DNA from: Lachnospiraceae bacterium MC2017
GTDB taxonomy: Bacteria; Bacillota; Clostridia; Lachnospirales; Lachnospiraceae
Direction of reading: 5' to 3'
Assembly: GCA_000701625.1 (NCBI GenBank)
Contig: JNJK01000016.1
Location: 1 to 64,000, forward strand
DNA: 64,000 nt
Positions within the stretch are counted from its first letter, which is position 1. Every line of letters starts with the position of its first letter. The notes below the pieces were generated by a model. It had not been told where the DNA came from and ran no database searches. It was given only the letters and a program-made list of their open reading frames with translations. The translations under genes were made by a program, and so were the position numbers. Of this stretch, positions 9,801-49,049 are shown piece by piece.

Positions 9801-9809
9801 TCTAATTGT

Positions 9810-9828: not shown

Positions 9829-9880
9829 AACAGTTACTAAGTAATCATAAACGAATCCTAGAAAGGATAAATGGTAATAC

Positions 9881-27462: not shown

Positions 27463-27519
27463 AATGCGAGTGCTTTAGAATTGCGTGAGCTGCATCAGCT
27501 GCGGAGCAATTCGTGTCAT
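27463..27519. repeat. 57-bp dispersed hairpin repeat, copy A
   Basis: Begins AATGCGAGTGCTTTAG and contains GAATTGC.../...GCAATTC flanking an inner stem. The same 57-bp element occurs at 45631-45687 with about 8 differences, several inside the loop arms. It sits between atpF and atpE within the ATP synthase operon. Confidence 0.8.
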
Positions 27520-27521
27520 CC

Positions 27522-32310: not shown

Positions 32311-32507
32311 CGTACAAGACGTATAGTTATTTCTTTCCGCGCTCGGACAGACACTAAGCTCACGCACTGCCTTCGCGGACTCGGTAATTTTCGCGAAACT
32401 CGCCGCAAAAGCGGCTCAAACAGTTCGCAAAAATTACCTGCTCAGTCAGCGTGTTTGCTAAGTGCTGCCGGCTGATTGCTACAAGAAATAACTATACGTC
32501 TTGCACG
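32311..32507 (-). repeat. ~200-nt hairpin repeat, copy 1 (inverted)
   Basis: On the minus strand it shares with copies 2 and 3 the blocks GCCGGCAGCACTTAG, AACACG, GGTAATT, AACTGTTTGAG, CGAGTTT, AATTACC, GCGTGAGCTTAGTG and CTGTCCGAGC. Its outer arms (21 perfect bp, 32315-32335 with 32483-32503) and apical stem (CCGC-TTTT-GCGG) differ from the other copies yet pair with each other. No gene is inside. Confidence 0.85.
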
Positions 32508-32552
32508 ATGGTTTTTGGCATAACAAAGAAACTGTTCAGAATTGCCATAACG

Positions 32553-32753
32553 TAAGTGCAGGACTTGTAGATTTCTCTTGGAACAATTAGCCGGCAGCAC
32601 TTAGAGAACACATTGTCCGAATAGGTAATTCAGGATAACTGTTTGAGACGCGAAGCGTCGAGTTTAGACTGAATTACCGTGTTTATGAGGACAATGCGTG
32701 AACTTAGTGCCTGTCCGAGCCGTGACAAGAGAAATCTACAAGCCCTGCACGTA
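32553..32753 (+). repeat. ~200-nt hairpin repeat, copy 2
   Basis: Outer arms starting near TAAGTGCAGGACTTGTAG and ending at CTGCACGTA pair over about 25 bp. The inner stem GGTAATTCAG/CTGAATTACC and the apical GACGC-GAA-GCGTC are perfect. It lies head-to-head with copy 1 between convergent genes and is about 85-90% identical to copy 3. Confidence 0.88.
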
Positions 32754-32803
32754 AAAACTTATTCAATACGTACACCCCTTGTACGTACACATCTGTCAAA
32801 ATC

Positions 32804-33307
32804 TTACATGCACTCAGGATGAAAAACCTTCTTAACAGGCAGGATAGCAGCGTAGAGGAGCTGCCCCAGGATGCCGCAGGAAATGACCTCGCCGATACCA
32901 ATAGTGATCATAAAGAAAGGAATTGTTCCCTCAGCATGATAGAAAAATTTAAGAGTGATGGGAACGATAAGGGTATTGGCAACAATCGGAGGGACAGACG
33001 CAAGGAAACGGTGCCTCTTGCGGAGAAGGTAAGTGCCTACAGCTCCGATAAGAGTGGCAATACTTCCGAGAATGACGTCGGGCGGTATACATCCTGTAGC
33101 GATATTACTGATGATGCATCCGGCGTATAACCCCGGGATAGCAGCAGGAGTAAAAGCCGGAAGGATGGTCATTGCCTCGGAAATACGTATCTGGATAGCG
33201 TTAGAAGCAAGACCAAACGCGTTGATAAAGCAGGTTAGTACAACATACAGGGCAGCAATCATGGCACCCTGTGTAATGTAAATGATCTTTTTCTGAAAAT
33301 TTGACAT
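32804..33307 (-). CDS. queT: QueT-type ECF substrate-binding component (queuosine precursor uptake)
   Basis: 167 residues, about five membrane helices. The pattern AALYVVLTCFINAFGLASNAIQIRISEAMTILPAF with RISEA(M/L) and GLYAGCIISNIATGCIPPDVILGS is characteristic of QueT (PF06177). QueT captures a queuosine precursor such as preQ1 and works with a shared ECF A/T module; no such module is adjacent. ATG 33307 has GAGGAG; the ORF's earlier start at 33358 is unsupported. It follows prs after a terminator, so it needs its own or read-through promoter. No clear preQ1 riboswitch was found. Confidence 0.88.
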   Translation of the reverse strand: MSNFQKKIIYITQGAMIAALYVVLTCFINAFGLASNAIQIRISEAMTILPAFTPAAIPGLYAGCIISNIATGCIPPDVILGSIATLIGAVGTYLLRKRHRFLASVPPIVANTLIVPITLKFFYHAEGTIPFFMITIGIGEVISCGILGQLLYAAILPVKKVFHPECM

Positions 33308-33362
33308 GTTTTTCTCCTCAAGAACAACGAATCTGACTTTGCAGGATTCTGCGTACAAGTTA

Positions 33363-33392
33363 AAAAATTCGTGCCGGACGAATCCGGCACGA
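33363..33392 (-). terminator. prs terminator
   Basis: CGTGCCGGA/TCCGGCACG stem (33371-33392) with a T6 run on the minus strand (33368-33363). Confidence 0.85.
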
Positions 33393-33413
33393 AAAATGAT
33401 ATCGTTTTATAAA

Positions 33414-34598
33414 TTACAGTTCTCCGTTGCGATAGCGGTTAACAAGAGCCTGAATACGGTTATTAGGATTCAGGAGATCGCTTATAGAAGAATCGTGGTT
33501 AAGTGTATCGATGATGAAAGCAATATACTTACTCATATCGCAGGATACATAGTATTCACGCTTTAAGAGCTCAGGACTCTGGTAGATACAGTTAGTAGTA
33601 AGAACGCGTGTAATAGTACCGTTTTTGTAAGCCTCATCAAATTCTTCAAGCCCATTTGTGAAAAGACCAAATGTAGCCATGATGAAAATACGCTTAGCTT
33701 TACGTGCCTTAAGCTCACGTGCAACGTCGAGAACACTCTCACCGGAGGAGATCATGTCGTCGATAACGAGAACATCCTTGCCTTCAACGGAAGAACCAAG
33801 GAATTCGTGAGCAACGATAGGATTCTTGCCATCCACGATCTCAGTATAGTCACGACGCTTATAGAACATACCCATATCAAGACCAAGTACGTTAGCGAGA
33901 TAGATAGCACGCTTCATACCGCCTTCATCCGGGCTGATAACCATCATGTGTTCTGCATCGATCTTGAGGTCATCTACATTGTTAAGAAGACCCTTCATAA
34001 ACTGATAAGCAGGCTGGATGGTCTCAAAACCATGAAGAGGAATGGAATTCTGAACACGGGCATCATGTGCATCAAATGTAATGATGTTATCAACACCCAT
34101 AGCAACCAGTTCCTGAAGTGCGATAGCACAGTCGAGAGACTCGCGGGAATTTCTCTTGTGCTGGCGACCTTCATAAAGGAAGGGCATGATCACAGTGATA
34201 CGACGAGCCTTACCGCCTACAGCTGCGATGATACGCTTCAGATCCTGATAATGATCATCAGGGGACATGTGGTTTTCTCTGCCGCAGAGCTTGTAAGTCA
34301 TGCTGTAATTGCAAATATCGCAGAGAAGGAAAAGATCCATACCACGGATGGACTCATTGATGGTTCCCTTTGCTTCGCCTGTACCGAAACGGGCGATGGA
34401 AGCCTTGATCATGTAGGAATCACGCTGATAGCCGGCAAAAGCAAGGCTGTTCTTGTGTTCATTCTCACGCTCTGTGCGCCAGTCAACAAGGTATTTGTCG
34501 ACCAATCCGGAGAGATCTCTGCATCCTTCGAGCGGAATTACACCAAGTTTACCAACCGGGATACTATCAAGCTTACGCTTACCTTCATGCACTGCCAT
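33414..34598 (-). CDS. prs: Ribose-phosphate pyrophosphokinase
   Basis: 394 residues, longer than the usual ~315-residue Prs. It makes PRPP from ribose 5-phosphate and ATP. The PRPP-binding loop VLVIDDMISSGESV, ITFDAHDARVQ (metal site) and MPFLYEGRQHKRNSRESLDC are clear. The extra N-terminal part and the ~30-residue tail (SISDLLNPNNRIQALVNRYR) fit the long Prs subgroup found in clostridia. GAGGAATTTTAGGA precedes ATG 34598. It lies downstream of the DnaD-DnaC-like pair and is probably in the same transcript. Confidence 0.9.
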   Translation of the reverse strand: MAVHEGKRKLDSIPVGKLGVIPLEGCRDLSGLVDKYLVDWRTERENEHKNSLAFAGYQRDSYMIKASIARFGTGEAKGTINESIRGMDLFLLCDICNYSMTYKLCGRENHMSPDDHYQDLKRIIAAVGGKARRITVIMPFLYEGRQHKRNSRESLDCAIALQELVAMGVDNIITFDAHDARVQNSIPLHGFETIQPAYQFMKGLLNNVDDLKIDAEHMMVISPDEGGMKRAIYLANVLGLDMGMFYKRRDYTEIVDGKNPIVAHEFLGSSVEGKDVLVIDDMISSGESVLDVARELKARKAKRIFIMATFGLFTNGLEEFDEAYKNGTITRVLTTNCIYQSPELLKREYYVSCDMSKYIAFIIDTLNHDSSISDLLNPNNRIQALVNRYRNGEL

Positions 34599-34649
34599 TC
34601 CTAAAATTCCTCACTTTCTGTGAAACAAAAAAATTTGCCATATATGGGA

Positions 34650-35612
34650 TCAGAGGCCAGTTTTCCTGAGCCGGAGATCCTCCCCTTTAAACCTATACAG
34701 ATTATACCCGCTAAGAATTCTGGAAAACGAACGTTCCGAGTAATCCTCCTTAAGTCTGGAAAGATCCAGATTACTGGAAATGATCGTGGAGCGCCTTCTA
34801 AGATTTCTTTCATTCAGGATTAGAAACAGTTCGGATCTTACAAAAGAATTTACCGTTTCGGTGCCGAGATCATCAATTATTAAGAGATCGGCATCAAAAA
34901 TATTCTTGTAAAAATCATTGTCTTCGGCTGTATCGCTATTTTGATTGAAAGTATGATCTGCAAGCGCACGAAAAAGCCGGAAGGCAGAAAAATATACCAC
35001 ACTGTATCCCTTATCCAGTACTGCTTTAGCAATACAATTAGAAAGGAACGTTTTTCCACTCCCGACGTTTCCTAAGAATAACATATTGGTATATGTGTTG
35101 GCAAATGTTTTTACGAACTCACGGGCGTCATTATACGCTTTTTCCATGTCCGGACGAACATTGTCCGAAAAAAGATCCATTCTGCATGCCGAAAAGTTCT
35201 CTTTATCGAGAACCTCGATGAGGTTCGACTGGGCATACATGGCATTGATGAGCTTCTGCTTCAAGCAGTGACATTTCTCAGATCCGATGTATCCGGTATC
35301 CTTGCAGTCAGGACAGTTATAGATGGGAGAGAGCCAGTTTTCGGGGTAGCCGAAAGAACAGAGCAGCTCTGATTTTTTTTCTGAAAGAGCACCTATTTTT
35401 TCACGAAGCATAGCGATAGCGGAATCGTCACCTTTTATGTAACGTTCGGCAGACTCAGTAGCTGCATCCGCAATCTCCTTTTCAAGTTCCTGAAATCCGG
35501 GAACATCGCGTCTTATCGCTTCTTTACGCTCGGTAAGGATTTTTGCGTTTTTTGTGCGGACAGTTTCGTATCCGCTCATTATTTCATTAAAACAGCGGTC
35601 AGACAGTGCCAT
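34650..35612 (-). CDS. DnaC/DnaI-like helicase loader ATPase
   Basis: 320-residue AAA+ protein. The N-terminal helical half contains a Zn knuckle CPDCKDTGYIGSEKCHCLKQ (about 99-118). The ATPase part has Walker A LGNVGSGKTFLSN (about 183), Walker B LLIIDDLGTE and sensor STIISSNLDLS. It should load DnaB-type helicase at origins, together with the upstream DnaD protein. GTGGAG precedes ATG 35612. It overlaps nothing and lies 17 nt after dnaD. Confidence 0.9.
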   Translation of the reverse strand: MALSDRCFNEIMSGYETVRTKNAKILTERKEAIRRDVPGFQELEKEIADAATESAERYIKGDDSAIAMLREKIGALSEKKSELLCSFGYPENWLSPIYNCPDCKDTGYIGSEKCHCLKQKLINAMYAQSNLIEVLDKENFSACRMDLFSDNVRPDMEKAYNDAREFVKTFANTYTNMLFLGNVGSGKTFLSNCIAKAVLDKGYSVVYFSAFRLFRALADHTFNQNSDTAEDNDFYKNIFDADLLIIDDLGTETVNSFVRSELFLILNERNLRRRSTIISSNLDLSRLKEDYSERSFSRILSGYNLYRFKGEDLRLRKTGL

Positions 35613-35629
35613 AGATTTTCTCCACTTTA

Positions 35630-36700
35630 TCAGTTTTTAGCAAATCTTTTTTCCAGATCATCATAATCGTAGCTGCGTTCTTCAAAGTTCTTGAATTTAT
35701 CCCTGCGTTCAGGAACAGCAGCTCTTTCACGGCTTGCGGGAGCTGAGCTCTTTGCGTGATCTGCATCGAGAGCATCGAGATCGGACTTCTTTCTGACATG
35801 CTTTGCCTTCCAGTTTTTCATGATGCTATCTGCATAGCTGAAGCTGGGCTTTGCAATGGAACGCATAGTACGGTTAACTGCTTCGATGATGAGATCCATG
35901 TCAAATCCGTACTCGTCTTTCCAACGCTTTATAAAATCAATTTCTGTCTGAACGGGATTTCTTCCGTTCAGGCCGAAGGCGCGGAGTACTGTGTAGTAGT
36001 CCTTGCGAAAAGTACTTGTGGCTGCGCGTGCGGAACTTACATCATGTATGCCCTGCTCGTCCCAAGCAATAGCGGTGGCTTCTATATAGCGCATGCTTCT
36101 GTGACCAGCATTTACGCAGTATTCAACCAGATATTCGATGAGATCCACATTGAAGCTAAGCTTGTCGTAGATAAAAAGGATAGTACTGATATCGGACATG
36201 CTCATAGGACGTCCAATATACTGTTCGGTCATAAAGAGTAAACCCTTAATATCTTCACGGCTTTTAAATTCATCAAGCTTGTCTGCGGAGTAGAAAGGAC
36301 GTGTCCCTTTTTTGTCCTCCTGCGGAGCGGAGGGAACTTCCGGGGCAGCGGGCTTTTCTTCTTTAACCACAGGTTTTACAGTGGAAATATTTGCTTTTGC
36401 GTTACTCTTAACTTTGTTAAGGCATATGCCGCAGATATTTTTTTCAGAATCATATTCAAGGGAAAGAAGACCTTGACGATCCCAGTATTGAAGGGATCTG
36501 AGAATATCGCTTTCTGTGAAATTGAAACGGTCTGCAAGGGTAGAAACGGAAATTTCAAGATCACCGCCGGCTGCGCGGAGCAGATACAGATAAATTTTTA
36601 TCTGTGCTTCGTTTGCTTCGGTCATGAACTGATCGATGAAGATATTTGAAACTAATGTGGAACCTGTGTTGCTCTTTTCGTATAATGCAATGCTGCTCAT
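35630..36700 (-). CDS. dnaD: DnaD domain replication initiation protein
   Basis: 356 residues. The N-terminal winged-helix region (about 20-100, ANEAQIKIYLYLLRAAGGDLEIS) and a charged linker precede a DnaB/DnaD C-terminal domain (DnaB_2; about 150-230, MSDISTILFIYDKLSFNVDLIEYLVEYC). A second related stretch follows (YYTVLRAFG... to FSYADSIMKNWK). DnaD proteins recruit the helicase loader after DnaA opens an origin. The gene directly follows a DnaA-box cluster, suggesting DnaA control. It is the first gene of dnaD-dnaC-like-prs. Confidence 0.85.
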   Translation of the reverse strand: MSSIALYEKSNTGSTLVSNIFIDQFMTEANEAQIKIYLYLLRAAGGDLEISVSTLADRFNFTESDILRSLQYWDRQGLLSLEYDSEKNICGICLNKVKSNAKANISTVKPVVKEEKPAAPEVPSAPQEDKKGTRPFYSADKLDEFKSREDIKGLLFMTEQYIGRPMSMSDISTILFIYDKLSFNVDLIEYLVEYCVNAGHRSMRYIEATAIAWDEQGIHDVSSARAATSTFRKDYYTVLRAFGLNGRNPVQTEIDFIKRWKDEYGFDMDLIIEAVNRTMRSIAKPSFSYADSIMKNWKAKHVRKKSDLDALDADHAKSSAPASRERAAVPERRDKFKNFEERSYDYDDLEKRFAKN

Positions 36701-36844
36701 AGTACCGCCTTCAAAAAACTGGATTTCTAATGGATCTTCTGTGATTCTATGTCATCAAGTCAGTGCGATTATAGCATAAGAAATTAACAATTTACAATGA
36801 GAAAACGTACGCAAACCCGCATAAAATGGGCGTTTTCGGAGTTT

Positions 36845-36959
36845 TGTGGATAATGTGGATATCGTGGATTACTCATCTGAAAGCTGAAATTACGCGAAAA
36901 AGAAATCCACACCTTTTTGTGGAGAGTTTTTCACAAAAAGATGTGGACAATGTGGATAA
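36845..36959. promoter_or_regulatory. DnaA-box cluster upstream of dnaD
   Basis: Two perfect boxes TGTGGATAA (36845-36853, 36951-36959, complement TTATCCACA) and a consensus TTTTTCACA (36927-36935). Near matches are TGTGGATAT (36854-36862) and TGTGGACAA (36942-36950), with weaker AAATCCACA and CGTGGATTA. Six to seven boxes fall in 115 bp of non-coding DNA between murC and dnaD. Confidence 0.8.
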
Positions 36960-36960
36960 C

Positions 36961-38340
36961 TTATTCGCCAAGGAGGTCTGTGCCAACTTTATACACATCT
37001 CCGGCTCCCATAGTTATTAACAGATCACCGTTGATACAATGTTCATGAATAAATTTTTCAATTTCTTCAAAAGAGTCGAAATAATAGGCATTTCCGCCAA
37101 TTCTGTTGATTTCGTCCGCCAGGGTTTTGGAGCTGATACCAAGTGTATCGGTTTCACGAGCAGCATAAATATCAGCAAGTATCACATTTTCTGCATGAGT
37201 GAGAGCTTCTGCAAACTCGGGAAGGAGTGCCTTTGTTCTGGTATAAGTATGAGGCTGGAAAACACACCAGAGTGATTTATGCGGATAGTGAGCAGCAGCT
37301 TCCAGTGTGGCTTTGATCTCTGTAGGATGATGAGCGTAGTCATCAATCACTGTGATTCCGTCAAATTCGCCCTTTTTCTCAAAACGGCGTTCTGTTCCGT
37401 GGAATTCGGAAAGAGCTTTGAGAGCCGGTGCCATGTCGATACCCAGGATGTGGGCAGCGGCTGCTGCAGCACAGGCGTTACCTACATTGTGCTCACCGGG
37501 GACGTGGAGGGAAATTCTTCCTATTTCTTCACCCTTATGATTGAGTGTGAAAGAAGGGTGAGCAAATTCATCATATGAAATATCGGTAGGATACCAGTCA
37601 GAACTGTTGTCCATGCCGAAGGTTACGATATTGCAGGAAAGTCCGTCAGTAATCGTATTAAAACCGGTGTCCTGTCCGTTCATGATGAGCGTACCGTCCG
37701 ACGGAATGAGAGCTGCGAAACGGCGGAAAGACTGACGGATGTCATCAAGATCCTTAAAGAAATCAAGGTGATCCGCATCGACATTCAGTATGATTCCGAT
37801 CTTGGGGAAGAAACTCAGGAAGCTGTTTGTATATTCACATGCTTCTGTTACAAAATAACGGTCGCCTCCAACTCGGAAATTTCCGTTGATGGAATGGAGC
37901 ATGCCACCTACGGAAATTGTAGGATCAGCATCAGCTTTAAGGAGGATCTCGGAAAGCATTGACGTGGTAGTTGTCTTACCATGAGTTCCTGCTACTGCGA
38001 CGGGAAGCTCGTAATGCTGCATTACCTGTCCGAGAAGTTCTGCACGGGTAAGAACAGGAAGGTTTCTCCTGCGAACCTCAGCGAGTTCGGGGTTGCCCTC
38101 ACGGATAGCAGCGGTCATGACAACGAGGTCGATGCCGTCGGTGATGTTTTCTGCAGCCTGAGGATAATGAATATCAGCTCCGAGAGAAGAAAGCATACGA
38201 GTGAGATCGCCTTCTTTCATATCTGAACCGGAAACAGTAAATCCCTTAGACAGCAGCAACTCAGCGAGACCGCTCATACTGATACCGCCTATACCGATGA
38301 AATGAATGTGAATCTTCTTATTAAAATCTATCTGATACAT
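36961..38340 (-). CDS. murC: UDP-N-acetylmuramate--L-alanine ligase
   Basis: 459-residue Mur ligase adding L-Ala to UDP-MurNAc in the cytoplasm. The N-terminal HFIGIGGISMSGLAELL nucleotide loop, ATP site AVAGTHGKTTTTSML (about 112-126), SFLSFFPKIGIILNVDADHLDF and DDYAHHPTEI are diagnostic. The length is normal. CGGAG lies before ATG 38340. The stop is just beside the DnaA-box cluster, so it does not belong to the dnaD operon by spacing, although read-through is possible. Confidence 0.95.
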   Translation of the reverse strand: MYQIDFNKKIHIHFIGIGGISMSGLAELLLSKGFTVSGSDMKEGDLTRMLSSLGADIHYPQAAENITDGIDLVVMTAAIREGNPELAEVRRRNLPVLTRAELLGQVMQHYELPVAVAGTHGKTTTTSMLSEILLKADADPTISVGGMLHSINGNFRVGGDRYFVTEACEYTNSFLSFFPKIGIILNVDADHLDFFKDLDDIRQSFRRFAALIPSDGTLIMNGQDTGFNTITDGLSCNIVTFGMDNSSDWYPTDISYDEFAHPSFTLNHKGEEIGRISLHVPGEHNVGNACAAAAAAHILGIDMAPALKALSEFHGTERRFEKKGEFDGITVIDDYAHHPTEIKATLEAAAHYPHKSLWCVFQPHTYTRTKALLPEFAEALTHAENVILADIYAARETDTLGISSKTLADEINRIGGNAYYFDSFEEIEKFIHEHCINGDLLITMGAGDVYKVGTDLLGE

Positions 38341-38594
38341 ATGAACTCCGTTTTTATTAAAATTTCATTTTGACTCTGTCATCCATTATATGATTTCTTA
38401 TATAAAAAGCAACATTGAGGCCTGGGTTAAAAAATTTGGAAATTAGCGTGTATCCTAGGATAAGATTTGTGCAAAAATGTAATCTGTATACAAAAGCAAT
38501 CAACATGATATGATCATTCGGTGATAAAAATGATGAAAAAGTCACAAAATAATTAATTTAATTTGTAAAAAACATCCCAAACAGCAATTGAAAA

Positions 38595-38603
38595 TGCTAT
38601 AAT
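38595..38603 (+). promoter_or_regulatory. Extended -10 promoter of the glycogen genes
   Basis: TGCTATAAT (38595-38603), no good -35. It starts a leader of about 225 nt. The 38341-38594 stretch is AT-rich without other signals. Confidence 0.55.
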
Positions 38604-38609
38604 GAAAGC

Positions 38610-38826
38610 ACGCTGTAACACTGAAGAGTTCGTGTGTAACTGTTCACACGTAAACGGAGCATTTACTGCGGAGTTTACGGCCCAAAACATTGAATAGACA
38701 CGTTTGTAATTTGTGGCATAAAGGGGCACGAACAGAGGGGTTTATACGGCTAAGACAGAGGATTTCCAAGGAAACGGTCCGGGCTAACGGATACGCGGGT
38801 GAAATCTGACAAACAAACAGGATGAG
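38610..38826 (+). promoter_or_regulatory. Long structured leader of glgC
   Basis: Contains hairpins CGTGTG-TAACTGTT-CACACG (38631-38650) and CGTAAAC/GTTTACG (about 38649-38679), then a G-rich part with repeated GGCTAA and a GATTTC/GAAATC stem enclosing TCCG/CGGA (about 38762-38808). No T-tract terminator. It does not match any riboswitch class I can name, but size and position suggest RNA-based control of glycogen synthesis. Confidence 0.4.
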
Positions 38827-38835
38827 GTGATGCGT

Positions 38836-40110
38836 ATGATCAAGAAGGAGATGATCGCCATGCTTCTCGCTGGAGGACAGGGAAGCAGACTAGGCGTTCT
38901 GACGACACACATGGCAAAACCGGCCGTACCATTTGGGGGAAAGTACCGCATTATTGATTTCCCTCTCAGTAACTGTATCAATTCTGGAGTTGATACAGTC
39001 GGTGTACTTACACAGTACCAGCCACTGAGACTGAATTCACATATCGGAATCGGTACACCGTGGGATCTCGACCGCTATATCGGAGGAGTATCTATCCTGC
39101 CGCCATTTGAAAAGAATGTCAGCAGTGAATGGTATACCGGTACTGCGAATGCGATCCTGCAGAATATTGAGTACATGGAAAGCTGCAATCCGGACTATGT
39201 ACTCATTCTTTCTGGTGACCATATCTACAAGATGGATTACGAGGTAATGCTGGATTACCACAAGCAGCAGAAGGCAGATGTTACCATCGCCTGTATGCCG
39301 GTACCGCTTGAGGAAGCAAAGAGATTCGGTATCATGATCACTGATGATGATCGCCGTATCGTAGATTTTGAGGAGAAGCCGGAGCATCCGAGAGGAAATC
39401 TGGCGTCGATGGGTATCTATATCTTCTCATGGAAGGTGCTGAAAGATGCACTTCTGGCACTTGCTGACCAGCCTAGTCTCGACTTTGGTAAGCATGTAAT
39501 TCCGTACTGCCGTGAAAAAGACCAGCGTATGTTCGCATACGAGTATAACGGCTATTGGAAGGATGTAGGAACTCTTAATTCATATTGGGAAGCCAATATG
39601 GAGCTTATCGATATCATTCCGGAATTTAATCTTTATGAAGAATACTGGAGGATCTTTACAAAGAGTGAAATCCTTCCGCCGCAGTATGTCGCAGACAATA
39701 CAGCGATCGAGAAGAGTATCATTGGTGAAGGTTCTACTATTTACGGACAGGTCATCAATTCTGTCATTGGATGCGGTGTAGTGATCGGAAAGGGTACAGT
39801 AGTACGTGATTCCATCATAATGAACAGAACCGTGATCGGTGAAGGATGTAATCTTGATAAGGCTATCATTGCTGAGGATTGTACTGTTGGTGATCGCGTA
39901 CAGCTGGGTGTTGGCGAGGAAGAAGAAAATGATACCAGACCGGATATTTACAATCACGGTCTTGTGACTATAGCTGAAAAGTCTGTCATTCCGTCAGGTC
40001 TGACAGTTGGAAAGAATACGGTTCTGTCCGGTTCCTTCCAGATTTCTGAATTTAAGAATGAGAGCCTTCCTTCCGGAAAAACATTCATTAAGGGAGGTGA
40101 CGAGAAATGA
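38836..40110 (+). CDS. glgC: Glucose-1-phosphate adenylyltransferase
   Basis: 424 residues making ADP-glucose from glucose 1-phosphate and ATP, the first committed step of glycogen synthesis. [16 protein letters not shown] (nucleotide loop), [20 protein letters not shown] (effector/active site), and a C-terminal left-handed beta-helix of hexapeptide-like repeats are present. ATG 38836 fits GAGGTG; GTG and ATG just upstream share the frame. It overlaps glgD by 4 nt. Confidence 0.95.
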
Positions 40111-41225: not shown

Positions 41226-41260
41226 AGTCTTTCTCTTGTGAAGGGCAAAGGGGGCAGACA

Positions 41261-41545: not shown

Positions 41546-41625
41546 GAGTCTACGGCGCCTGCGCTTGCGAAGAGAATCCGGCAAAGCCGGATGCGTTGTT
41601 CTTTCTGAAAGCGAGTGAACAGTAA

Positions 41626-41805
41626 CGAAACTGGGGAGGGTATGTTATAATAAGGGGCTCCGTCCGAGAGGACGGAGCTCTACTGGTTTTAAATGCCTCG
41701 GGGACGCAATGCATTATTCCGGATTTACCGGACGTATCCTACTCGATAAAAAGCTATGTTGTAACCGATATATATGATGACATGGTCATCGTGCTTGCAA
41801 GATAG
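41626..41805 (+). pseudogene. Orphan coding-like frame without a start
   Basis: A 60-codon frame ends at TAG 41803-41805 and contains protein-like sequence (EDGALLVLNASGTQ, then IIPDLPDVSYSIKSYVVTDI, YDDMVIVLAR). There is no ATG, GTG or TTG near its beginning. GGGGAGGG (41633-41640) precedes an ATG at 41642 that is one base out of frame; a single-base loss could explain this. It ends 12 nt before mfd. It could be a broken small gene or a remnant. Confidence 0.35.
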
Positions 41806-41817
41806 AAAGGTGCTGCT

Positions 41818-44800
41818 ATGAATTTTCTGACATCGCCCCTAACGGAGCTTGGTATATATGAAGATCTGAATAATGCCTTGAAAAAAGTCGGAATCACGGA
41901 AGTCGAGGGATGTGTCGATTCTGAAAAGGTGAATTTTGCGGCATCTCTTCGAGAAGATGCAAAATATAAGGTTATTGTGACTACAGATGATACCAGGGCG
42001 AGGGAAATACTCTCAGACCTGAGAGTCTATGACAGTAATGCTGTATATTATCCTGCCCGGGATCTGATATTTTATCAGTCTGACCTAAACGGAAATCAGC
42101 TGATAAAGGACAGGATGACTGCGATCCGTGCCATGCTTGAGGAGAAAAGCGTTACGGTGGTGACTACTTTTGACGCCTTTATGGAAAAGATTCCCGGACT
42201 TGAGCTGATACGTGATCATGTAATGGAGATAGATGACGAGTCCGAGTTTGAAGTAGACGAATTGGCGCATGATCTCGTGAGTCGTGGATATACGAGAACT
42301 TCTCAGGTTGAGAGCGAAGGGCAGTTTGCTGTGCGCGGCGGTATAGTTGATATCTGGCCGCTTACAGAAGAAAATCCTATCCGAATGGAACTCTGGGGAG
42401 AGGAAGTGACATCGATAAGGAGCTTTGATGCTGTGAGTCAGCGCTCCATAGAAGATGTGCCCTGGTTTCGCGTATATCCTGCAACAGAGCTGATACTTAC
42501 TGGTGATGAGCGTGAGGCGGGACTCAATGCGATAAAAAAGGAATTTGATTCCCGATATAAAGCTTTACGAAAAGAAATGAAAACCGAAGAGGCCTTTCGG
42601 TTAAAGAGTACTATAGGCGAATTTTGTGATGAACTTACGGATGGAACAGGTACGGTCAGTTCGGCAGGTTATGTAAACTACTTTTTTGAATCACTGAATT
42701 CCTTTCTTGATTTCTTTAAGCCGCAAGAAACCGTAATTTTTCTCGATGAACCTGTGCACCTGATCGAGAAAGCGGATGCAGTCATGGCAGAGTTTACGGA
42801 GAGCATGACTGCGCGTCTTGAAAAAGGTTATACGTTGTCGGGTGCGGCAGATCTTCTTTATGATAAAAAAGAGATATTTGCAAGGATAATTTCCCGCCCG
42901 ACATTAGCGATGGCAACGATCCTGCAGAGGCAGGATCAGTACAAAACAGAGACCAGATACAGTGTAAGTACGAGGTCTGTTAATTCCTATAATGGTTCTT
43001 TCGAATCACTGGTTGAAGATCTGAAAAAATACAGAAAAAATCATTACCGGATAGTTATCCTGTCTGCGTCGGTAACCCGTGCAAGGCGGCTTGCGGATAA
43101 TCTGAATGATAATGGTATTCCGGCTTTTTTCTCTGATGATAAAAGCCGTGAGCTGAAGCCGGCGGAAGTAATGACGGCTTACGGTTCTGTACGTCAGGGC
43201 TTTGAATATCCGGATATTCGTTTCTGCGTCATGAGTGAGACGGATATTTTCGGTGGTATACGAAAAAAGAAAAGAAAGCATCACAAATATGAGGGCGAGC
43301 GTATCGCGAGCTTCACGGATCTCTCGGTTGGTGACTATGTGATCCATGAAAATTATGGAGTAGGTCAGTACCAGGGTATCGAGCATCTGGATATCGATGG
43401 CGTTACCCGTGATTATGTAAAGATAAATTATAAGGATAATTCCTCGGTTTATGTCATTGCGTCAAATCTGGATGCGCTGCAGAAATATGCGTCGAGAGAT
43501 GCGGAAAAAAAGCCTAAACTGAATAAGCTTGGGACACAGGAGTGGGCAAAGACAAAGGCGAGAGTCCATAAATCTGTGGAAGGAGTCGCAAAGAGACTGG
43601 TTGCTCTTTATGCAGCGCGGCAGAACGGAAAGGGTTTTGCCTGCGGACCGGATACGGTGTGGCAGCGGGAATTTGAAGAAATGTTTCCGTTTGAAGAAAC
43701 GGAAGATCAGGAGATGGCGATCGAAGCAGTCAAGCATGATATGGAAAGTACACGTATCATGGACCGCCTGATCTGTGGAGATGTTGGATTTGGTAAAACG
43801 GAAGTTGCCATAAGGGCGGCATTTAAGGCGGTTCAGGAAAGTAAGCAGGTTGCGATACTCGTACCGACGACCATTCTTGCGGAGCAGCACTATAATACTT
43901 TCCGGCAGCGATTAAAGAATTATCCTGTGCGAATAGATCTTCTCTGTCGTTTCAGAACGGCAGCTGAGCAGCGAAAGACTATTGCTGATCTTAAAAAGGG
44001 TCAGGTAGATATTGTTGTCGGAACTCACAGGCTTCTTTCGAAGGACGTGGAATTTAGTGATCTTGGGCTTTTGGTCATAGACGAGGAGCAGCGTTTTGGA
44101 GTGACACATAAGGAAAAGATAAAGGAACTCCGACAAAATGTGGATGTTTTGGCACTTACGGCTACGCCTATTCCGAGAACACTGCATATGAGTCTGGTCG
44201 GCATCAGAGATATGAGTGTCCTTGAGGAAGCACCGCAGGATCGTATGCCTATCCAGACCTTTATCATGGAATACTCCGATGAAATGGTCAGAGAGGCAGT
44301 GTCCCGTGAACTTGCCCGCGGAGGACAGGTTTACTATGTTTACAATCGCGTGAATGACATCGCTCAGATAGCAGCGGATCTGCAGACTATGATTCCGAAT
44401 GCCACGGTAGCATATGCACATGGACAGATGAGAGAACGTGAGCTTGAAGATATAATGAGTGACTTCATAAACGGAGCCATAGATGTACTGGTTTCCACGA
44501 CCATAATCGAGACAGGCCTTGATATTTCCAATGCAAATACGATGATCATCCATGATGCGGATCGCATGGGACTTTCGCAGCTGTATCAGCTTCGAGGCAG
44601 AGTCGGGAGATCGAACCGCACAGCTTACGCCTTTCTCATGTACAAGAGAAATAAGCTCCTAAAAGAGACTGCTGAGAAACGACTGGCAGCTATAAGGGAA
44701 TTTACCGATCTTGGAAGCGGATTCCGTATAGCTATGAAGGATCTTGAGATCAGAGGATCCGGTAATGTCCTCGGTGCAGAGCAGAGCGGTCACATGGAAG

Positions 44801-45351
44801 AAGTAGGATATGACCTTTACTGCAAGATGCTGGACACAGCCGTAAAAGAAGAAAAAGGAGAAAAAGTTTTTCCGGAATTCACAACCACCGTTGATATGGA
44901 CGAAGATGCCTTTATTCCAAATAGCTATGTAAAAAATGAAAATCAGAAGCTGGATCTTTATAAGAGGATCGCTGTTATAGACAACAGAGATGAAGCGGAA
45001 GATATGGTGCAGGAATTGAAAGACAGATTCGGCGCACCTCCGAAGAGTGTATTAAATCTTATCGAGATCGCACTTGTACGGCAGAAGGCACATAAAGTAT
45101 TTATCGAAAATCTGTCCGCAAAGGAAAATTCGATCATGTTCCATGTGTTTGCAAAGGCAGAATTAAATCCTGTAAAAATACCGGAACTCCTCGATAAATA
45201 TGACGGTGGGCTCACTTTTAAGGCAGTCGGAAAACCTGTATTTGTATATAAATATGGAAAGAACGAAAGTCGCGATTATATAAAAACGGCAAATAATGTT
45301 CTTGATCAGATGCAAATTTTACTTAATAATCTGATAGACGACTCAGAATAA
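41818..45351 (+). CDS. mfd: Transcription-repair coupling factor
   Basis: 1177 residues, full-length Mfd. Domains in order: UvrB-like N-terminal (about 20-330), RNA-polymerase-binding CarD-like domain (about 490-560, GDYVIHENYGVGQYQG), RecG-like helicase with Walker A LICGDVGFGKTEVAIRAAF, DEEQ box LLVIDEEQRFGVTHKEK, QLRGRVGRS motif VI, and the TRCF C-terminal domain (about 1010-1150). It removes stalled RNA polymerase and recruits UvrA. AGAAAGG precedes ATG 41818. Confidence 0.96.
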   Translation: MNFLTSPLTELGIYEDLNNALKKVGITEVEGCVDSEKVNFAASLREDAKYKVIVTTDDTRAREILSDLRVYDSNAVYYPARDLIFYQSDLNGNQLIKDRMTAIRAMLEEKSVTVVTTFDAFMEKIPGLELIRDHVMEIDDESEFEVDELAHDLVSRGYTRTSQVESEGQFAVRGGIVDIWPLTEENPIRMELWGEEVTSIRSFDAVSQRSIEDVPWFRVYPATELILTGDEREAGLNAIKKEFDSRYKALRKEMKTEEAFRLKSTIGEFCDELTDGTGTVSSAGYVNYFFESLNSFLDFFKPQETVIFLDEPVHLIEKADAVMAEFTESMTARLEKGYTLSGAADLLYDKKEIFARIISRPTLAMATILQRQDQYKTETRYSVSTRSVNSYNGSFESLVEDLKKYRKNHYRIVILSASVTRARRLADNLNDNGIPAFFSDDKSRELKPAEVMTAYGSVRQGFEYPDIRFCVMSETDIFGGIRKKKRKHHKYEGERIASFTDLSVGDYVIHENYGVGQYQGIEHLDIDGVTRDYVKINYKDNSSVYVIASNLDALQKYASRDAEKKPKLNKLGTQEWAKTKARVHKSVEGVAKRLVALYAARQNGKGFACGPDTVWQREFEEMFPFEETEDQEMAIEAVKHDMESTRIMDRLICGDVGFGKTEVAIRAAFKAVQESKQVAILVPTTILAEQHYNTFRQRLKNYPVRIDLLCRFRTAAEQRKTIADLKKGQVDIVVGTHRLLSKDVEFSDLGLLVIDEEQRFGVTHKEKIKELRQNVDVLALTATPIPRTLHMSLVGIRDMSVLEEAPQDRMPIQTFIMEYSDEMVREAVSRELARGGQVYYVYNRVNDIAQIAADLQTMIPNATVAYAHGQMRERELEDIMSDFINGAIDVLVSTTIIETGLDISNANTMIIHDADRMGLSQLYQLRGRVGRSNRTAYAFLMYKRNKLLKETAEKRLAAIREFTDLGSGFRIAMKDLEIRGSGNVLGAEQSGHMEEVGYDLYCKMLDTAVKEEKGEKVFPEFTTTVDMDEDAFIPNSYVKNENQKLDLYKRIAVIDNRDEAEDMVQELKDRFGAPPKSVLNLIEIALVRQKAHKVFIENLSAKENSIMFHVFAKAELNPVKIPELLDKYDGGLTFKAVGKPVFVYKYGKNESRDYIKTANNVLDQMQILLNNLIDDSE

Positions 45352-45416
45352 TTTTGTTATGATTAATTTTTGAAATTTGATAGTTACCAACCAATGTTGT
45401 TAAAGGAGGTAATATA

Positions 45417-45632
45417 ATGGATAACGCAGCTATGGATAATAATCCGATCAATAATCTCGAATTTACACCCGGAGCACATATCCGTTTTAAGGATGAGAAG
45501 GATAAGATGGTAGGAGGAAAGCTCTTAAAGGAATATCCTTACATCGTAACTGTTCAGGCAGATACTCTGCATGGAAAGGTTTATGGCGTAGCTAAGAATT
45601 CATTCGTATGCGGTGACGCGAAGTTTGAGTAA
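45417..45632 (+). CDS. Small 71-residue protein, SH3-like
   Basis: Cytoplasmic protein with an Asn-rich start and a predicted beta-barrel core (FTPGAHIRFKDEKDKMVGGKLLKEYPYIVTVQADTL...). The alternation of Gly and hydrophobic residues is like an SH3-type nucleic-acid-binding fold; this is inference and no family is recognised. An excellent AAAGGAGGT lies 8 nt before ATG 45417. The stop overlaps the beginning of the 57-bp repeat copy B. Position between mfd and pth suggests a housekeeping transcript. Confidence 0.7.
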   Translation: MDNAAMDNNPINNLEFTPGAHIRFKDEKDKMVGGKLLKEYPYIVTVQADTLHGKVYGVAKNSFVCGDAKFE

Positions 45633-45687
45633 TGCGAGTGTTTTAGAATTGCGGGAGCTTCGTAAGAAGCGGAGCAATTCGTATCAT
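45631..45687. repeat. 57-bp dispersed hairpin repeat, copy B
   Basis: Same length and ends as copy A (27463-27519). Inner arms here read GCTTC-GTAA-GAAGC, where copy A has GCTGC...GCTGC with one mismatch; flanking GAATTGC/GCAATTC is identical. It abuts the stop of the preceding gene. Confidence 0.8.
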
Positions 45688-45741
45688 TTAGTTAGAAGTC
45701 GGATACTTCTGCTGAAATGCGGCAGATGACGGAGTAAGAAA

Positions 45742-46320
45742 ATGTATATAATTGCAGGTCTGGGAAATCCCGGACGTCAGTACGAAGGCACCCGCCACAA
45801 TGTCGGTTTCTCTGTGATCGATATTCTGGCAGATAAGTATGGGATCGCACTTGATTTTGAGAAGCATAAGGCAATCTGTGGAAAGGGTGTCATCGAAGGA
45901 GAAAAGGTGATCCTTGTGAAGCCGCTTACATTTATGAATCTAAGCGGTGAAAGCCTGCAGGAAGTGATTCATTATTACAAAGTGGATCCGGAAAATGATC
46001 TGATCGTGATATCTGATGATATAGACCTTGATGTGGGCAGGATACGTGTGCGTCCAAAGGGAAGCGCCGGTGGCCATAATGGGTTGAAGAATATCATAGC
46101 TCACCTTGGTACAGATGGATTTGCCAGAGTTAAGGTCGGGGTCGGATCAAAGCCTAAGGGCTGGGATCTGGCAGACTGGGTACTTGGACATTTCTCTGAT
46201 GAGGATGAGAAACTTGTACAGGAGTCAAAGAAAAACGCTGCTCTTGCAGTTGTTGACATTATGCAGGAAGGCTGCGAGAAGGCAATGAATCATTTTAATA
46301 AAAAGGATTTATCGTTATGA
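45742..46320 (+). CDS. pth: Peptidyl-tRNA hydrolase
   Basis: 192 residues that release tRNA from drop-off peptidyl-tRNA. IIAGLGNPGRQYEGTRHNVGF (catalytic His of RHN), KPLTFMNLSGES, VISDDIDLDVGRIRVRPKGSAGGHNGLKNI are diagnostic. ATG 45742 lies after GGAGTAAGAAA. It overlaps the MATE gene by 4 nt (ATGA). Confidence 0.95.
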   Translation: MYIIAGLGNPGRQYEGTRHNVGFSVIDILADKYGIALDFEKHKAICGKGVIEGEKVILVKPLTFMNLSGESLQEVIHYYKVDPENDLIVISDDIDLDVGRIRVRPKGSAGGHNGLKNIIAHLGTDGFARVKVGVGSKPKGWDLADWVLGHFSDEDEKLVQESKKNAALAVVDIMQEGCEKAMNHFNKKDLSL

Positions 46321-47654
46321 GGGATCTGACAAAGGGCAAGCCCATCCGACTGATCTTTTTATTTGTGCTTCCGTTGGTGTTGGGGCAGCTTTTTCAGCAG
46401 TTTTACAGCATAGTAGATGTTCATATCGTTGGAGAGACATTAGGGGAGGTCCCGTTGGCAGCAGTCGGCGCGACAACCCCTCTTTCTGACTTTCTGATCG
46501 GTTTCTTAAATGGATTCTGTAATGGCTTTGCGATAGTAGTGGCCACCTGCTTTGGCGCGAAAGATGAAAAACGTGTCAGAAAGGCAGTTGCAGCATCGTT
46601 TATAGTCGGTGCTGTTTTAGCGGTCGCACTTACGATACCCGGGACACTGTTTTTGAAACCTGTACTGCATTTTCTGAATGTCGAAGATAGCCTGATACCA
46701 ATGTCGGTATCATATATAAGAGTTATCATTACAGGTCTTATTTTTTCTGTACTGTATAATACCTGCGCAGCAGTACTACGAGGTATCGGGGATACGGTTA
46801 CACCGCTGATCTTTCTAATACTTTCGGCAGGCTTGAATATCGGTCTCGATTATCTGCTTATAGTCGGTTTTCACATGGGAGTATCCGGAGCTGCACTAGC
46901 GACAGTGCTGTCGCAGGCAATTTCAGCAGGGCTTTGCGTGATGCGCATAATCAAGAGATATCCTATGCTTCATGTAGCCGGTCCGGATCTGAAGTTTGAC
47001 AGTAAACTGTATAAAAATATTTTAACTACGGGCGTATCCATGGGACTCATGATCTCTCTCGTAAATCTCGGTACGCTGGTTCTTCAGAGTGCGATCAATT
47101 CCTTTGGACCATATGTGATAGTTGCACATACGGCAGCAAGGAAAGCAACCAGCGTATATATGCTTCCGAACAGCGTATTCGGTTCGGCGCTTGCGACCTT
47201 TGCCGGGCAGAATTTCGGTGCAGGAAAGTATGACAGGATAAGAGTTGGTTTTCGTCAGTCCATGATAGCGGTATGCATTTGGGATTTGATGATCTGTGCG
47301 CTGTCATGGATAGCAGGAGAGCAGATAATAGGACTTATAACAGCCAGTCAGAATAAAGAAGTACTCTTTTGGGGTGCCTGGTATCTGAAGTTTGATACCA
47401 TATTTTATGCACTTGCAACAGCCGTAGTCCTTTTTAGAAATACACTTCAGGGAATGGGATTTGCTGTGATGACGATACTCTCGAGCTTTTTTGAACTGGC
47501 TACAAAGGCTGTCGTTGCATTTATGCTGGCACCTGTAATGGGATATCGTGGAATCATCCTTTGTGAACCGGTTGCATGGGCAGTCATGCTCATACCGCTG
47601 GTCATCAAGTGGATAATGATAATAAGATCGCCTAAGATGGTTAAAGAAAAGTAA
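46317..47654 (+). CDS. MATE family multidrug efflux transporter
   Basis: 445 residues with 12 predicted membrane helices in two related halves. The beginning GKPIRLIFLFVLPLVLGQLFQQFYSIVDVHIVG and internal NPVLRGIGDT-like TCAAVLRGIGDTVTPLIFL match clostridial MATE (NorM/DinF-like) exporters driven by H+ or Na+. Given the predicted Na+ ATP synthase, Na+ drive is possible but not shown. It starts inside the pth stop. A small hairpin follows at 47660. Confidence 0.9.
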   Translation: MRDLTKGKPIRLIFLFVLPLVLGQLFQQFYSIVDVHIVGETLGEVPLAAVGATTPLSDFLIGFLNGFCNGFAIVVATCFGAKDEKRVRKAVAASFIVGAVLAVALTIPGTLFLKPVLHFLNVEDSLIPMSVSYIRVIITGLIFSVLYNTCAAVLRGIGDTVTPLIFLILSAGLNIGLDYLLIVGFHMGVSGAALATVLSQAISAGLCVMRIIKRYPMLHVAGPDLKFDSKLYKNILTTGVSMGLMISLVNLGTLVLQSAINSFGPYVIVAHTAARKATSVYMLPNSVFGSALATFAGQNFGAGKYDRIRVGFRQSMIAVCIWDLMICALSWIAGEQIIGLITASQNKEVLFWGAWYLKFDTIFYALATAVVLFRNTLQGMGFAVMTILSSFFELATKAVVAFMLAPVMGYRGIILCEPVAWAVMLIPLVIKWIMIIRSPKMVKEK

Positions 47655-47659
47655 CTTTT

Positions 47660-47677
47660 AGAACTCAAAAGAGTTCT
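47660..47677. repeat. Small hairpin with TGAATAGTTAT tail
   Basis: AGAACTC-AAAA-GAGTTCT stem followed by TGAATAGTTAT (47677-47687). It is the sister of the element at 9810-9837, with a changed but still paired stem. Confidence 0.45.
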
Positions 47678-47701
47678 GAATAGTTATAACGGTAAGTCAG
47701 A

Positions 47702-48745
47702 ATGACAATAGATCATAAATATCCGTGGCAGGAGGATGGAGAGCGTTGGTATACGTTCTCGTCCTTCTGCCGACGTACTTTTGGGAAAAAATTATTTCGT
47801 GTGCCATTAGACATAGGGTGCACCTGCCCCAACAGGGATGGAAGTCTGGGGAAGAACGGATGCATTTTTTGTGATGAGGGCGGAAGCGGAGATTTCGCAA
47901 TAAAATATGAGGGGCAGAGTCTTACGGAAGATGATTTCATATGGAATCATCAGAAAAAAAGAGATGGGGATCCTTGTGGAAAATACATAGCATATTTTCA
48001 ATCATATACAAATACATATGCGAGCATAGAGAGGCTTGAAAAAGTATTCGGAGCGGCGCTTGATGATCCGCTTTTTTCCGGAATATCCATAGGCACGAGA
48101 CCTGACTGCCTTGGAATCTATGGGGTTACAAATCGTTCACTATCAATGCCTGATGGGCCTGTGATACCGATGCTTATGAGATTAAAAATGTTGCACCCGG
48201 AGAAATTTATCTGGGTGGAGCTCGGGCTACAGACTATCCATGAAAAAACAGCAGGATTTATCAGACGGGGCTATCCTCTGGAAGTATTTGATAAGGCTGT
48301 AGATGAACTTCATAAAGCAGACATACCGGTCATATGTCATGCCATCCTGGGACTCCCGGGAGAAACAGAGGAAATGAACCTTCAGACCATAGACTACTTA
48401 AATAAAGCTGGAATCTCCGGTATAAAGCTTCAGCTCCTGCATTACCTAAAAGGCACAGATCTTGGACGGATGTGGCAGATGCAGCACCCTGAGGGCGAGG
48501 AGAATGCGGTACCTTCAGGCGGAACAGAGATGGCACTCGAAGCATTATCTAAAATAGATTATGTAAACAAAGTAGCAAACTGTCTGGCGTATCTGTCTTC
48601 TGACACAGTAGTCCACCGATTAACCGGAGACGGAGCCCTTGACCTCCTTCTATCCCCAACCTGGAGCCGCGCCAAAAAACGCGTAATAAATGAAATCCGC
48701 CACACCATGAAAGAACGGGGACTAGTGCAGGGGTGTGAGGTGTGA
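47702..48745 (+). CDS. TIGR01212 family radical SAM protein
   Basis: 347-residue radical SAM enzyme of the YhcC/TIGR01212 type. The cluster-binding Cys are in CTCPNRDGSLGKNGCIFC (about 41-58), followed by IAYFQSYTNTYA, SIGTRPDCL and WVELGLQTIHEKT. The reaction of this family is not established. No strong ribosome site is near ATG 47702. A weak hairpin ATCAC/GTGAT (48782-48797) follows the gene. Confidence 0.88.
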   Translation: MTIDHKYPWQEDGERWYTFSSFCRRTFGKKLFRVPLDIGCTCPNRDGSLGKNGCIFCDEGGSGDFAIKYEGQSLTEDDFIWNHQKKRDGDPCGKYIAYFQSYTNTYASIERLEKVFGAALDDPLFSGISIGTRPDCLGIYGVTNRSLSMPDGPVIPMLMRLKMLHPEKFIWVELGLQTIHEKTAGFIRRGYPLEVFDKAVDELHKADIPVICHAILGLPGETEEMNLQTIDYLNKAGISGIKLQLLHYLKGTDLGRMWQMQHPEGEENAVPSGGTEMALEALSKIDYVNKVANCLAYLSSDTVVHRLTGDGALDLLLSPTWSRAKKRVINEIRHTMKERGLVQGCEV

Positions 48746-48848
48746 TGATATAATGGTAGGAAGGTTTTGGGTGTGAAATTGATCACTCAAAGGTGATTGT
48801 TAAAAAGCAGTGTCTGCCTATATATGTAGAGTAGATGTTGTAGAAGTG

Positions 48849-49049
48849 TAAGTGAAAGGTGAATATTTATCTCTTGGAACAATTAGCCGGCAGCACTTAG
48901 TGAACACGTTGTCCGAATAGGCAATTCAGGATAACTGTTTGAGACGCGAAGCGTCGAGTTTAGACTGAATTGCCGTGTATATGAGGACAATGCGTGAGCT
49001 TAGTGACTGTCCGAGCCGTGACAAGAGATAAATGTTCAACTTGAACGTA
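48849..49049 (+). repeat. ~200-nt hairpin repeat, copy 3
   Basis: Same length as copy 2 (201 nt). The inner stem is GGCAATTCAG/CTGAATTGCC where copy 2 has GGTAATTCAG/CTGAATTACC, a compensatory change. The outer arms (TGAATATTTATCTCTTG with CAAGAGATAAATGTTCA) differ from copy 2 but still pair. It lies between the radical SAM gene and udp, and transcription of udp may pass from or through it. Confidence 0.88.

What the first reader, a model, noticed from the sequence alone, without database searches (positions are those of the whole stretch)
32311..49049. Three-copy ~200-nt hairpin family with compensatory changes
Copies at 32311-32507 (minus), 32553-32753 and 48849-49049 share a conserved core and tips (YTGnACGTA at the right end, a complementary ACGTnCARG-like left end). 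Paired segments differ between copies while staying paired inside each copy. The inner stem is GGTAATTCAG/CTGAATTACC against GGCAATTCAG/CTGAATTGCC. The apical stem is GACGC/GCGTC against CCGC/GCGG. The outer arms are ...AGATTTCTCTTG, ...TTATTTCTT and ...ATTTATCTCTTG, each with its own complement. Ordinary MITE terminal repeats would be conserved in sequence; here structure is conserved. This suggests a selected RNA, or a mobile hairpin that is copied and corrected through a folded single-strand form. No protein is encoded inside.
Basis: seen in the sequence. Interest (0 to 1): 0.85.

Follow-up and report, generated by a model that had tools for sequence, protein, structure and literature searches.

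The report
Multicopy long-hairpin elements with conserved tip
The three hairpins belong to a large, unnamed family of dispersed long hairpins in gut and rumen bacteria whose arms differ from copy to copy yet stay paired, while a small motif at the tip hardly changes; this points to a folded RNA (or one folded DNA strand) as the thing being preserved.

Summary
The three copies lie where stated, fold far better than shuffles (z -9 to -12), and are 3 of 25 full copies found in this genome. Pairing is kept through two-sided changes (95.4% of cells paired against 27-42% when slid; 51 of 64 pairs). No Rfam family matches. Related hairpins occur in 25 of 397 Lachnospiraceae genomes; across genera they share a tip, ACTGTYTGAG-[small stem]-CGAGTT, laid out like a kink-turn, on arms unrelated in sequence. 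In the home genus many same-site copies are more alike than their flanks, and one-sided changes favour G-U over A-C (37:9) on the strand read from the left end, as for a folded RNA or one folded DNA strand; other sites carry quite different elements. In genus g16 arms change on both sides together without strand preference (13:15), which looks like arm-to-arm correction in DNA. Close neighbours nearly always face each other by their left ends. No transposase, guide target or promoter could be tied to the element. Best reading: an old non-autonomous dispersed element whose transcript is a selected structured RNA. Mobility is inferred; function is unproven.

The parts
32311..32507 (-). hairpin copy 1 (reads leftwards; right end at 32311)
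32397..32424 (-). tip motif of copy 1, ACTGTTTGAG-CCGC..GCGG-CGAGTT
   Evidence: motif tested
32508..32552 (.). short spacer between the facing left ends of copies 1 and 2; no gene
32553..32753 (+). hairpin copy 2
32638..32664 (+). tip motif of copy 2, ACTGTTTGAG-ACGC..GCGT-CGAGTT
48849..49049 (+). hairpin copy 3, between a radical-SAM gene (47702-48745) and a nucleoside phosphorylase gene (49083-49856)
48934..48960 (+). tip motif of copy 3

Best explanation
The copies are members of an old, dispersed, non-autonomous hairpin element. Shown: the strand that runs from the left end (ACGTAAGTGCAG) to the right end (CTGCACGT) folds into one long hairpin; arms may take almost any sequence that keeps pairing; the tip is conserved and its sequence has the order of a kink-turn (bulge UGUYU, then G.A and A.G against GA); at many sites in this genus a copy keeps its own arms between species. 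Inferred: the hairpin is transcribed, mostly by read-through from neighbouring genes since no promoter of its own was found; an RNA-binding protein reads the tip (a k-turn protein of the L7Ae kind is a guess) and the internal loops; the folded RNA then protects, processes or separates the transcripts of the genes around it. The element first spread by an unknown enzyme acting in trans, and in this genus most copies are now held in place by selection on the RNA fold.
For: Folding and covariation. Element identity mean 96.8% against 81.4% (left 100 bp) and 84.7% (right 60 bp) at 20 same-site pairs chosen from the conserved group. One-sided changes WC to GU 37, WC to AC 9 in a strand-balanced, reciprocal count over 19 same-genus pairs, p = 4e-5; 29 to 9 with the consensus structure, p = 0.002. 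Tip motif: 31 of 299 Lachnospiraceae genomes (12 of them with five or more sites) and 25 of 398 genomes over the phylum (7 with five or more), with the backwards pattern as control 0-2 per genome; 104 of 107 tip sites in loci fetched from other genomes have arms above the 99th percentile of 642 random positions. Intergenic, right end 15-60 bp from the next gene in 38 of 68 copies by a crude gene call.
Against: No promoter enrichment in the left flank (mean best score 7.0 left, 6.6 right, 6.2 shuffled; scores of 10 or more: 4 left, 9 right of 68), so transcription is unshown. The strand asymmetry alone cannot tell RNA from one folded DNA strand. In genus g16 the asymmetry is absent (13:15) and in 4 of 5 counted pairs the element is less alike than its flanks. 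At least 6 same-site pairs of the home genus carry quite different elements (73-79% identity) and 7 more are at 81-88%, so constraint per site is not universal. Gene orientation next to the element is mixed, which does not fit one fixed cis-regulatory role.
Confidence: 0.45

Rival explanations
1. One folded DNA strand is the active form: a single-strand recombination or transposition substrate, as attC sites or REP hairpins are, with the tip and bulges read by a nuclease or transposase.
For: G.T is also tolerated better than A.C in a folded DNA strand (recalled), so the 37:9 asymmetry fits; conserved ends AACGTAAGTGCAG and CTGCACGT; left ends of close neighbours face each other in 17 of 17 pairs under 300 bp; near-identical copies in G414 and in G647.
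Against: No enzyme found: none of 16 RAYT-like Y1 loci is framed by these hairpins; other enzyme families were not searched. Conservation above the flanks at many sites is not expected of an idle substrate. No target duplication seen in the sites viewed.
Confidence: 0.27
2. A neutral miniature element whose arms are kept complementary by mutation, not selection: template switching or snap-back repair copies one arm onto the other.
For: Genus g16: over 5 same-site pairs, 41 of 605 pairs changed on both sides against about 5 expected, 39 of the 41 still paired, with no GU over AC bias; in 4 of the 5 the element is less alike than its flanks.
Against: In the window's genus one-sided changes prevail (51 one-sided, 8 two-sided) and are strand-biased; tip and internal loops are conserved although they are not Watson-Crick paired.
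Confidence: 0.15
3. Terminal inverted repeats of a RAYT-type Y1 transposon (TIRtron), left behind as singles and facing pairs.
For: TIRs of TIRtrons also occur as singles and close dimers (PMC3733652, section 16 read). Long Y1 genes (open frame of 220 aa or more) are commoner in the carriers I picked (9 of 17) than in the non-carriers (2 of 18), p = 0.01.
Against: None of 16 long-Y1 loci fetched (13 from carriers) has the tip motif in its flanking repeats; 7 of 16 are framed by repeats with GGGGAC and two by GGGACATGTCC repeats. Carriers G328 (complete genome, 25 sites), G265, G257 and G176 have no Y1 match at all.
Confidence: 0.04
4. The variable arms are guides or antisense stretches aimed at another gene.
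For: Arms are copy-specific and at many sites held constant.
Against: 22-nt arm probes of copies 2 and 3, allowing 3 mismatches, match nowhere else in the own genome except the partner arm of copy 2; only 2 of 25 copies were tested, and only against the own genome.
Confidence: 0.03

Closest known systems
REP / REPIN palindromes and TIR dimers of RAYT/TIRYT transposons (PMC3733652, abstract and section 16 read)
   Same: Dispersed, extragenic, palindromic, many copies, close inverted dimers, plausibly transcribed and acting as RNA hairpins
   Different: REPs are 20-40 bp with GTAG or CGTC tags; here about 200 nt, arms not conserved, conserved tip, no linked Y1 gene
ERIC/IRU, NEMIS/Correia and RUP/BOX type hairpin repeats (recalled)
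   Same: Intergenic palindromic elements of 100-200 bp, co-transcribed with neighbours, able to fold as RNA
   Different: Those keep their arm sequence between copies (recalled); this family keeps only pairing, internal motifs and tip
K-turn RNAs bound by L7Ae-family proteins, e.g. OLE RNA with OapC (PMC9723947, title and start of abstract seen in a search listing)
   Same: Helix, bulge, tandem G.A/A.G, helix at the tip matches the k-turn order (PMC4316175, passages read)
   Different: Bulge is 5 nt (UGUYU) instead of the usual 3; folding and protein binding untested; OLE is about 600 nt
Integron attC sites (recalled)
   Same: Structure conserved over sequence; one strand folds
   Different: No RYYYAAC/GTTRRRY ends seen; about 200 nt; no search for an integrase was made

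Membership tests
Any Rfam family (release 15) | covariance model match at the gathering score | tested here: not met
   whole window: only Clostridiales-1 at 27364-27521, about 5 kb from the copies; best sub-threshold hits around copies 1 and 2 MIR444 E 0.017 and RsmY E 0.48; four loci of distant genomes: 0
REP/TIRtron elements | repeat flanks a Y1 (RAYT/TIRYT) transposase gene | tested here: not met
   0 of 16 RAYT-like loci have the tip motif in their flanking repeats; the tip occurs about 2.7 kb away in two loci
REP/TIRtron elements | GTAG or CGTC tag next to a 20-40 bp palindrome | tested here: not met
   ends are AACGTAAGTGCAG / CTGCACGT and length is about 200 nt
MITE (TIR-type) | terminal inverted repeats conserved in sequence between copies | tested here: not met
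   outer helix: all 16 pairs vary on both sides, 90.4% of cells paired; only about 8-13 bases at the very ends are conserved
MITE (TIR-type) | target site duplication and empty sites | tested here: inconclusive
   two seemingly empty sites keep a right-end remnant, so they look like deletions
Structured RNA | base-pair covariation above controls | tested here: met
Structured RNA | transcription of the folded strand | not testable with these tools
   no expression data; no promoter signal in the left flank
K-turn RNA | C helix, bulge, G.A then A.G, NC helix | tested here: inconclusive
   sequence order fits with a 5-nt bulge; 60 of 68 own-genus copies have the strict motif; folding not tested
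attC site | RYYYAAC ... GTTRRRY ends | tested here: not met
   end profiles; attC consensus recalled

The most novel reading that the evidence does not exclude
A widespread class of mobile hairpins that multiply through a folded single-strand (RNA or DNA) form recognised at one conserved tip, so that the arms are rewritten from each other and can drift without limit while every copy stays folded; in some hosts single copies have since become selected RNA genes.
Probability: 0.18. Interest if true: 0.87.

Novelty: new variant of a known kind. Interest (0 to 1): 0.62.

Why it matters
A repeat family recognised by its fold and tip rather than by its sequence is invisible to ordinary repeat and RNA annotation; here some sampled genomes from four families of the phylum carry 5-37 tip sites each, and no Rfam family covers the copies tested. 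If the RNA reading is right, some rumen and gut Clostridia hold dozens of unnamed structured RNAs per genome. If the arm-rewriting reading is right, it gives a natural system for watching how palindromes are copied and corrected in bacteria.

Tried and rejected
Rfam at gathering and E-value thresholds: nothing credible at the copies tested. Own sigma-70 promoter: no enrichment. Terminator: no T-run after the right end (mean longest run 2.2 in 40 nt). Riboswitch-like leader: neighbour orientation is mixed (up/down strands ++ 26, +- 15, -- 14, -+ 11, two with no upstream call, of 68). Y1 transposase partner: see rivals. Guide arms. Cargo between facing copies at larger distance: ordinary genes in L194, L247, L268; one DUF2971 gene in viral contig L207. 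Plasmid and phage records: a 40-nt tip query gave no match in either at E 0.05, and a 451-bp L207 query none in phages. Viral contigs: full-element pattern 0 stretches, tip pattern 1, L207; the arms of both L207 tip sites are short and fail the random-position control, so L207 is a doubtful member. I take it for proteobacterial from composition and recalled repeats; no call names its host. Three of the 57 genome contigs stretches (L077 Prevotellaceae, L084, L120 Rhizobiales) gave no covariance-model match and I take them as chance. My first GU:AC count (35:2) was biased because pairs were taken from the fold of one partner; the corrected counts are 37:9 and 29:9, and I use those. The arm scores are too lenient; arm lengths are and the control. 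Literature: searches showed no description of this family in the titles and abstract starts listed (one search listed 30 of 174 papers); read were passages of PMC4666352 and PMC4316175 and the abstract plus section 16 of PMC3733652; the others were seen as listings only. The library holds open-licence papers only.

Full report
What is there. Copies 1 (32311-32507, minus), 2 (32553-32753) and 3 (48849-49049) were read from the sequence. Each folds as one hairpin from end to end, with z-scores of -9.2, -11.6 and -9.8 and no shuffle as stable out of 200. No reading frame of 100 aa or more lies inside them. Copies 1 and 2 face each other by their left ends across a spacer of about 43-45 bp, between a gene ending at 32248 (no Pfam match) and the QueT-like transporter gene 32804-33358 (minus); copy 3 ends 34 bp before a nucleoside phosphorylase gene.

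How many. BLAST of copy 2 against the own genome gives 28 matches. After a profile search of the fetched loci, with minus-strand echoes removed, there are 25 full copies in G000, 19 in G001, 19 in G047 and 3 in G030 (full means more than 180 model positions; for the congeners only listed matches were fetched, so these are lower bounds). Only 4 of 48 genomes of the genus, own genome included, have BLAST matches. No two full copies within G000, G001 or G047 exceed 87% identity, so there was no recent burst in these genomes.

Covariation. In an alignment of 43 copies, 39 of this genus and 4 from more divergent Lachnospiraceae records, 95.4% of 2737 cells pair, 51 of 64 pairs have a two-sided change, and none of 500 shuffles reaches any measure. 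Sliding one side by 1-3 columns drops pairing to 27-42%. All 16 pairs of the outer helix vary. Conserved places outside plain pairing are the GGAACAAUCA/GAGCCGUGA junction, a CUUAG/CUUAG stretch with a U.U mismatch, and the tip.

The tip. Distant members found with the covariance model (25 of 397 family genomes in 22 of 334 genera; at most 6 candidates per genome were scored, so copy numbers are lower bounds) have arms unrelated to ours, and most share ACTGTYTGAG-[stem]-CGAGTT (the group of L074, L091, L106 and L111 and a few others do not). Used as a pattern, the tip occurs in 31 of 299 Lachnospiraceae genomes (I sum 188 matches; the backwards control gives 13) and in 25 of 398 genomes over the phylum, with 37 matches in G647, 23 in G812 and 15 in G470. 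Some single matches will be chance: several have long middles that do not pair, and L204 has no hairpin. Of 107 distinct tip sites in loci of distant genomes, 104 have arms above the 99th percentile of 642 random positions in the same loci; the three that fail are L204 and both sites of viral contig L207, and three more (L269+, L271, L212) have arms of only 12-14 nt by this scoring. The largest random score, 158.6, exceeds all tip sites; I suppose that position fell on another palindrome but did not look. In genus g16 (G062, G386) 55 sites have a median arm of 126 nt (5th-95th percentile 76-182) with 88% Watson-Crick columns. The tip reads as C helix, UGUYU bulge, G.A, A.G, NC helix, which is the k-turn order (PMC4316175, passages read) with a longer bulge. 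That is a resemblance, not a test.

Evolution at fixed sites in the home genus. I compared elements at sites where flanks match between genomes. They fall into groups: 19 pairs at 92-99.5% element identity, 7 at 81-88% and 6 at 73-79% with both flanks matching (its output was cut, so the last two are lower bounds). For 20 pairs, the 19 of the conserved group plus one from two more divergent MAGs (L118/L122), the element averages 96.8% against 81.4% for 100 bp on the left (higher in 18 of 20) and 84.7% for 60 bp on the right (17 of 20). These pairs were chosen as the conserved ones, so the comparison shows constraint where an element is kept, not at every site. The pair L010/L045, whose elements are identical over the aligned hairpin, fell out because near-identical copies had been merged. 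At the phosphorylase site G000, G001 and G047 carry three different elements beside nearly the same gene start, and G030 has an unrelated repeat there. No copy closer than 83% was found for the G001 element or 79% for the G047 element (G047 is 75% complete). One copy (L024_1159) looks like a chimera, with a left half like its orthologue and a right half like its neighbour, so copies do recombine.

RNA or DNA. If a single strand is selected, a Watson-Crick pair should decay to G-U on that strand more readily than to A-C. The balanced count (pairs present in folds of both strands, both directions, 19 same-genus pairs) gives 37 GU and 9 AC, p = 4e-5; the consensus structure gives 29 to 9, with 11 to 6 in the outer arms and 18 to 3 in the core. 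Unpaired positions show 13 C/T and 8 A/G differences, no bias that would explain it. So the strand running from left end to right end is the selected one, as RNA or as folded DNA; the signal is stronger in the core than in the outer arms. In genus g16 five same-site pairs give 13 GU and 15 AC, and 41 of 605 pairs changed on both sides where about 5 are expected. Four of these five elements (76-90%) are less alike than their flanks (88-94%); the fifth, L206/L255, is more alike (91%) than its one matched flank (81%). Twelve matches were found; I left out three that point to one and the same locus (L220) and four whose arms were too different to align (26-65%). This looks like one arm being copied from the other, or DNA-level pairing, rather than RNA selection. 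The two genera differ (Fisher p = 0.004).

Arrangement. Within 300 bp, 17 of 17 neighbouring pairs (partial copies counted; 9 distinct sites once orthologous ones are merged by my reading) have facing left ends; the only two others within 1 kb, at 822 and 835 bp, are -- and +-. In other genera 7 of 9 neighbours less than 1 kb apart in the loci I had fetched do the same: L160, L186, L211, L242, L265, L269 and L304, against L183 (++) and L243 (--). The right end sits 15-60 bp from a gene in 38 of 68 copies, whichever way the gene points. I have no tested explanation; facing dimers are also typical of REP and TIR elements (PMC3733652).

Mobility. G414 has six copies 96-99.6% alike over 252-537 bp, carrying a very distant version of the hairpin (29.7 bits) plus other shared sequence. 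In G647 all 9 fetched sites lie within 150 bp of a contig end with near-identical inner arms, as expected of a repeat that breaks assembly. These suggest movement, in relatives and not in the window's genome. The two seemingly empty sites in the home genus retain right-end remnants and are better read as deletions. Long Y1 (RAYT-like) genes occur in 9 of 17 carriers and 2 of 18 non-carriers that I picked by hand, but none of 16 such loci is framed by tip-bearing hairpins.

Verdict. A real and large family, unlabelled in Rfam, conserved in fold and tip rather than in arm sequence. In the home genus it behaves as a selected structured RNA (or one folded DNA strand); in g16 as a hairpin whose arms evolve together. 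Function and means of spread remain open.

Noticed in passing
window 27364-27521 (+): A Clostridiales-1 RNA (Rfam RF01699, 101 bits) lies about 5 kb from the hairpin pair.
   Followed up: no
L207 (viral contig) 9043-9077 and about 10240-10267: Two tip motifs with short arms face outward around a DUF2971 gene (9253-10164) in a GC-rich viral contig; the only viral contig with the stricter tip pattern.
   Followed up: partly
L177-L182 (G414): Six near-identical 250-540 bp repeats with a distant version of the hairpin followed by a terminator-like stem-loop: a possibly active element.
   Followed up: partly
L130 upstream of the phosphorylase gene; L061 and L098 left flanks: Another dispersed repeat (around GAATGCGAAGCATTGCCCAT) occupies the site where G000, G001 and G047 carry hairpins.
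   Followed up: no
L308, L312, L314, L315, L317, L318, L321 (GGGGAC); L309, L310 (GGGACATGTCC): Long Y1 transposase genes framed by their own inverted repeats: TIRtron-like elements in Clostridia.
   Followed up: partly
G000:C1:234164-234262; G047:C3:21427-21538; G000:C22:10647-10742: Shortened hairpins that lack the middle of the element (model about 58 to 144-154), broken near the two CTTAG stretches.
   Followed up: no
G000:C26:39668-39712, G000:C7:188027-188072, G001:C3:18806-18850: Solo right-end fragments (about model positions 157-202) lie opposite full copies, as remnants of facing pairs.
   Followed up: no
G000:C7:198444 and 205463 with L062, L063, L086: Two element types seem to have exchanged places between two sites 7 kb apart when G000 is compared with G047 and G001.
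   Followed up: no
own genome: 14 Y1_Tnp matches, one on the window's contig outside the window (C15:76841-77203).
   Followed up: no
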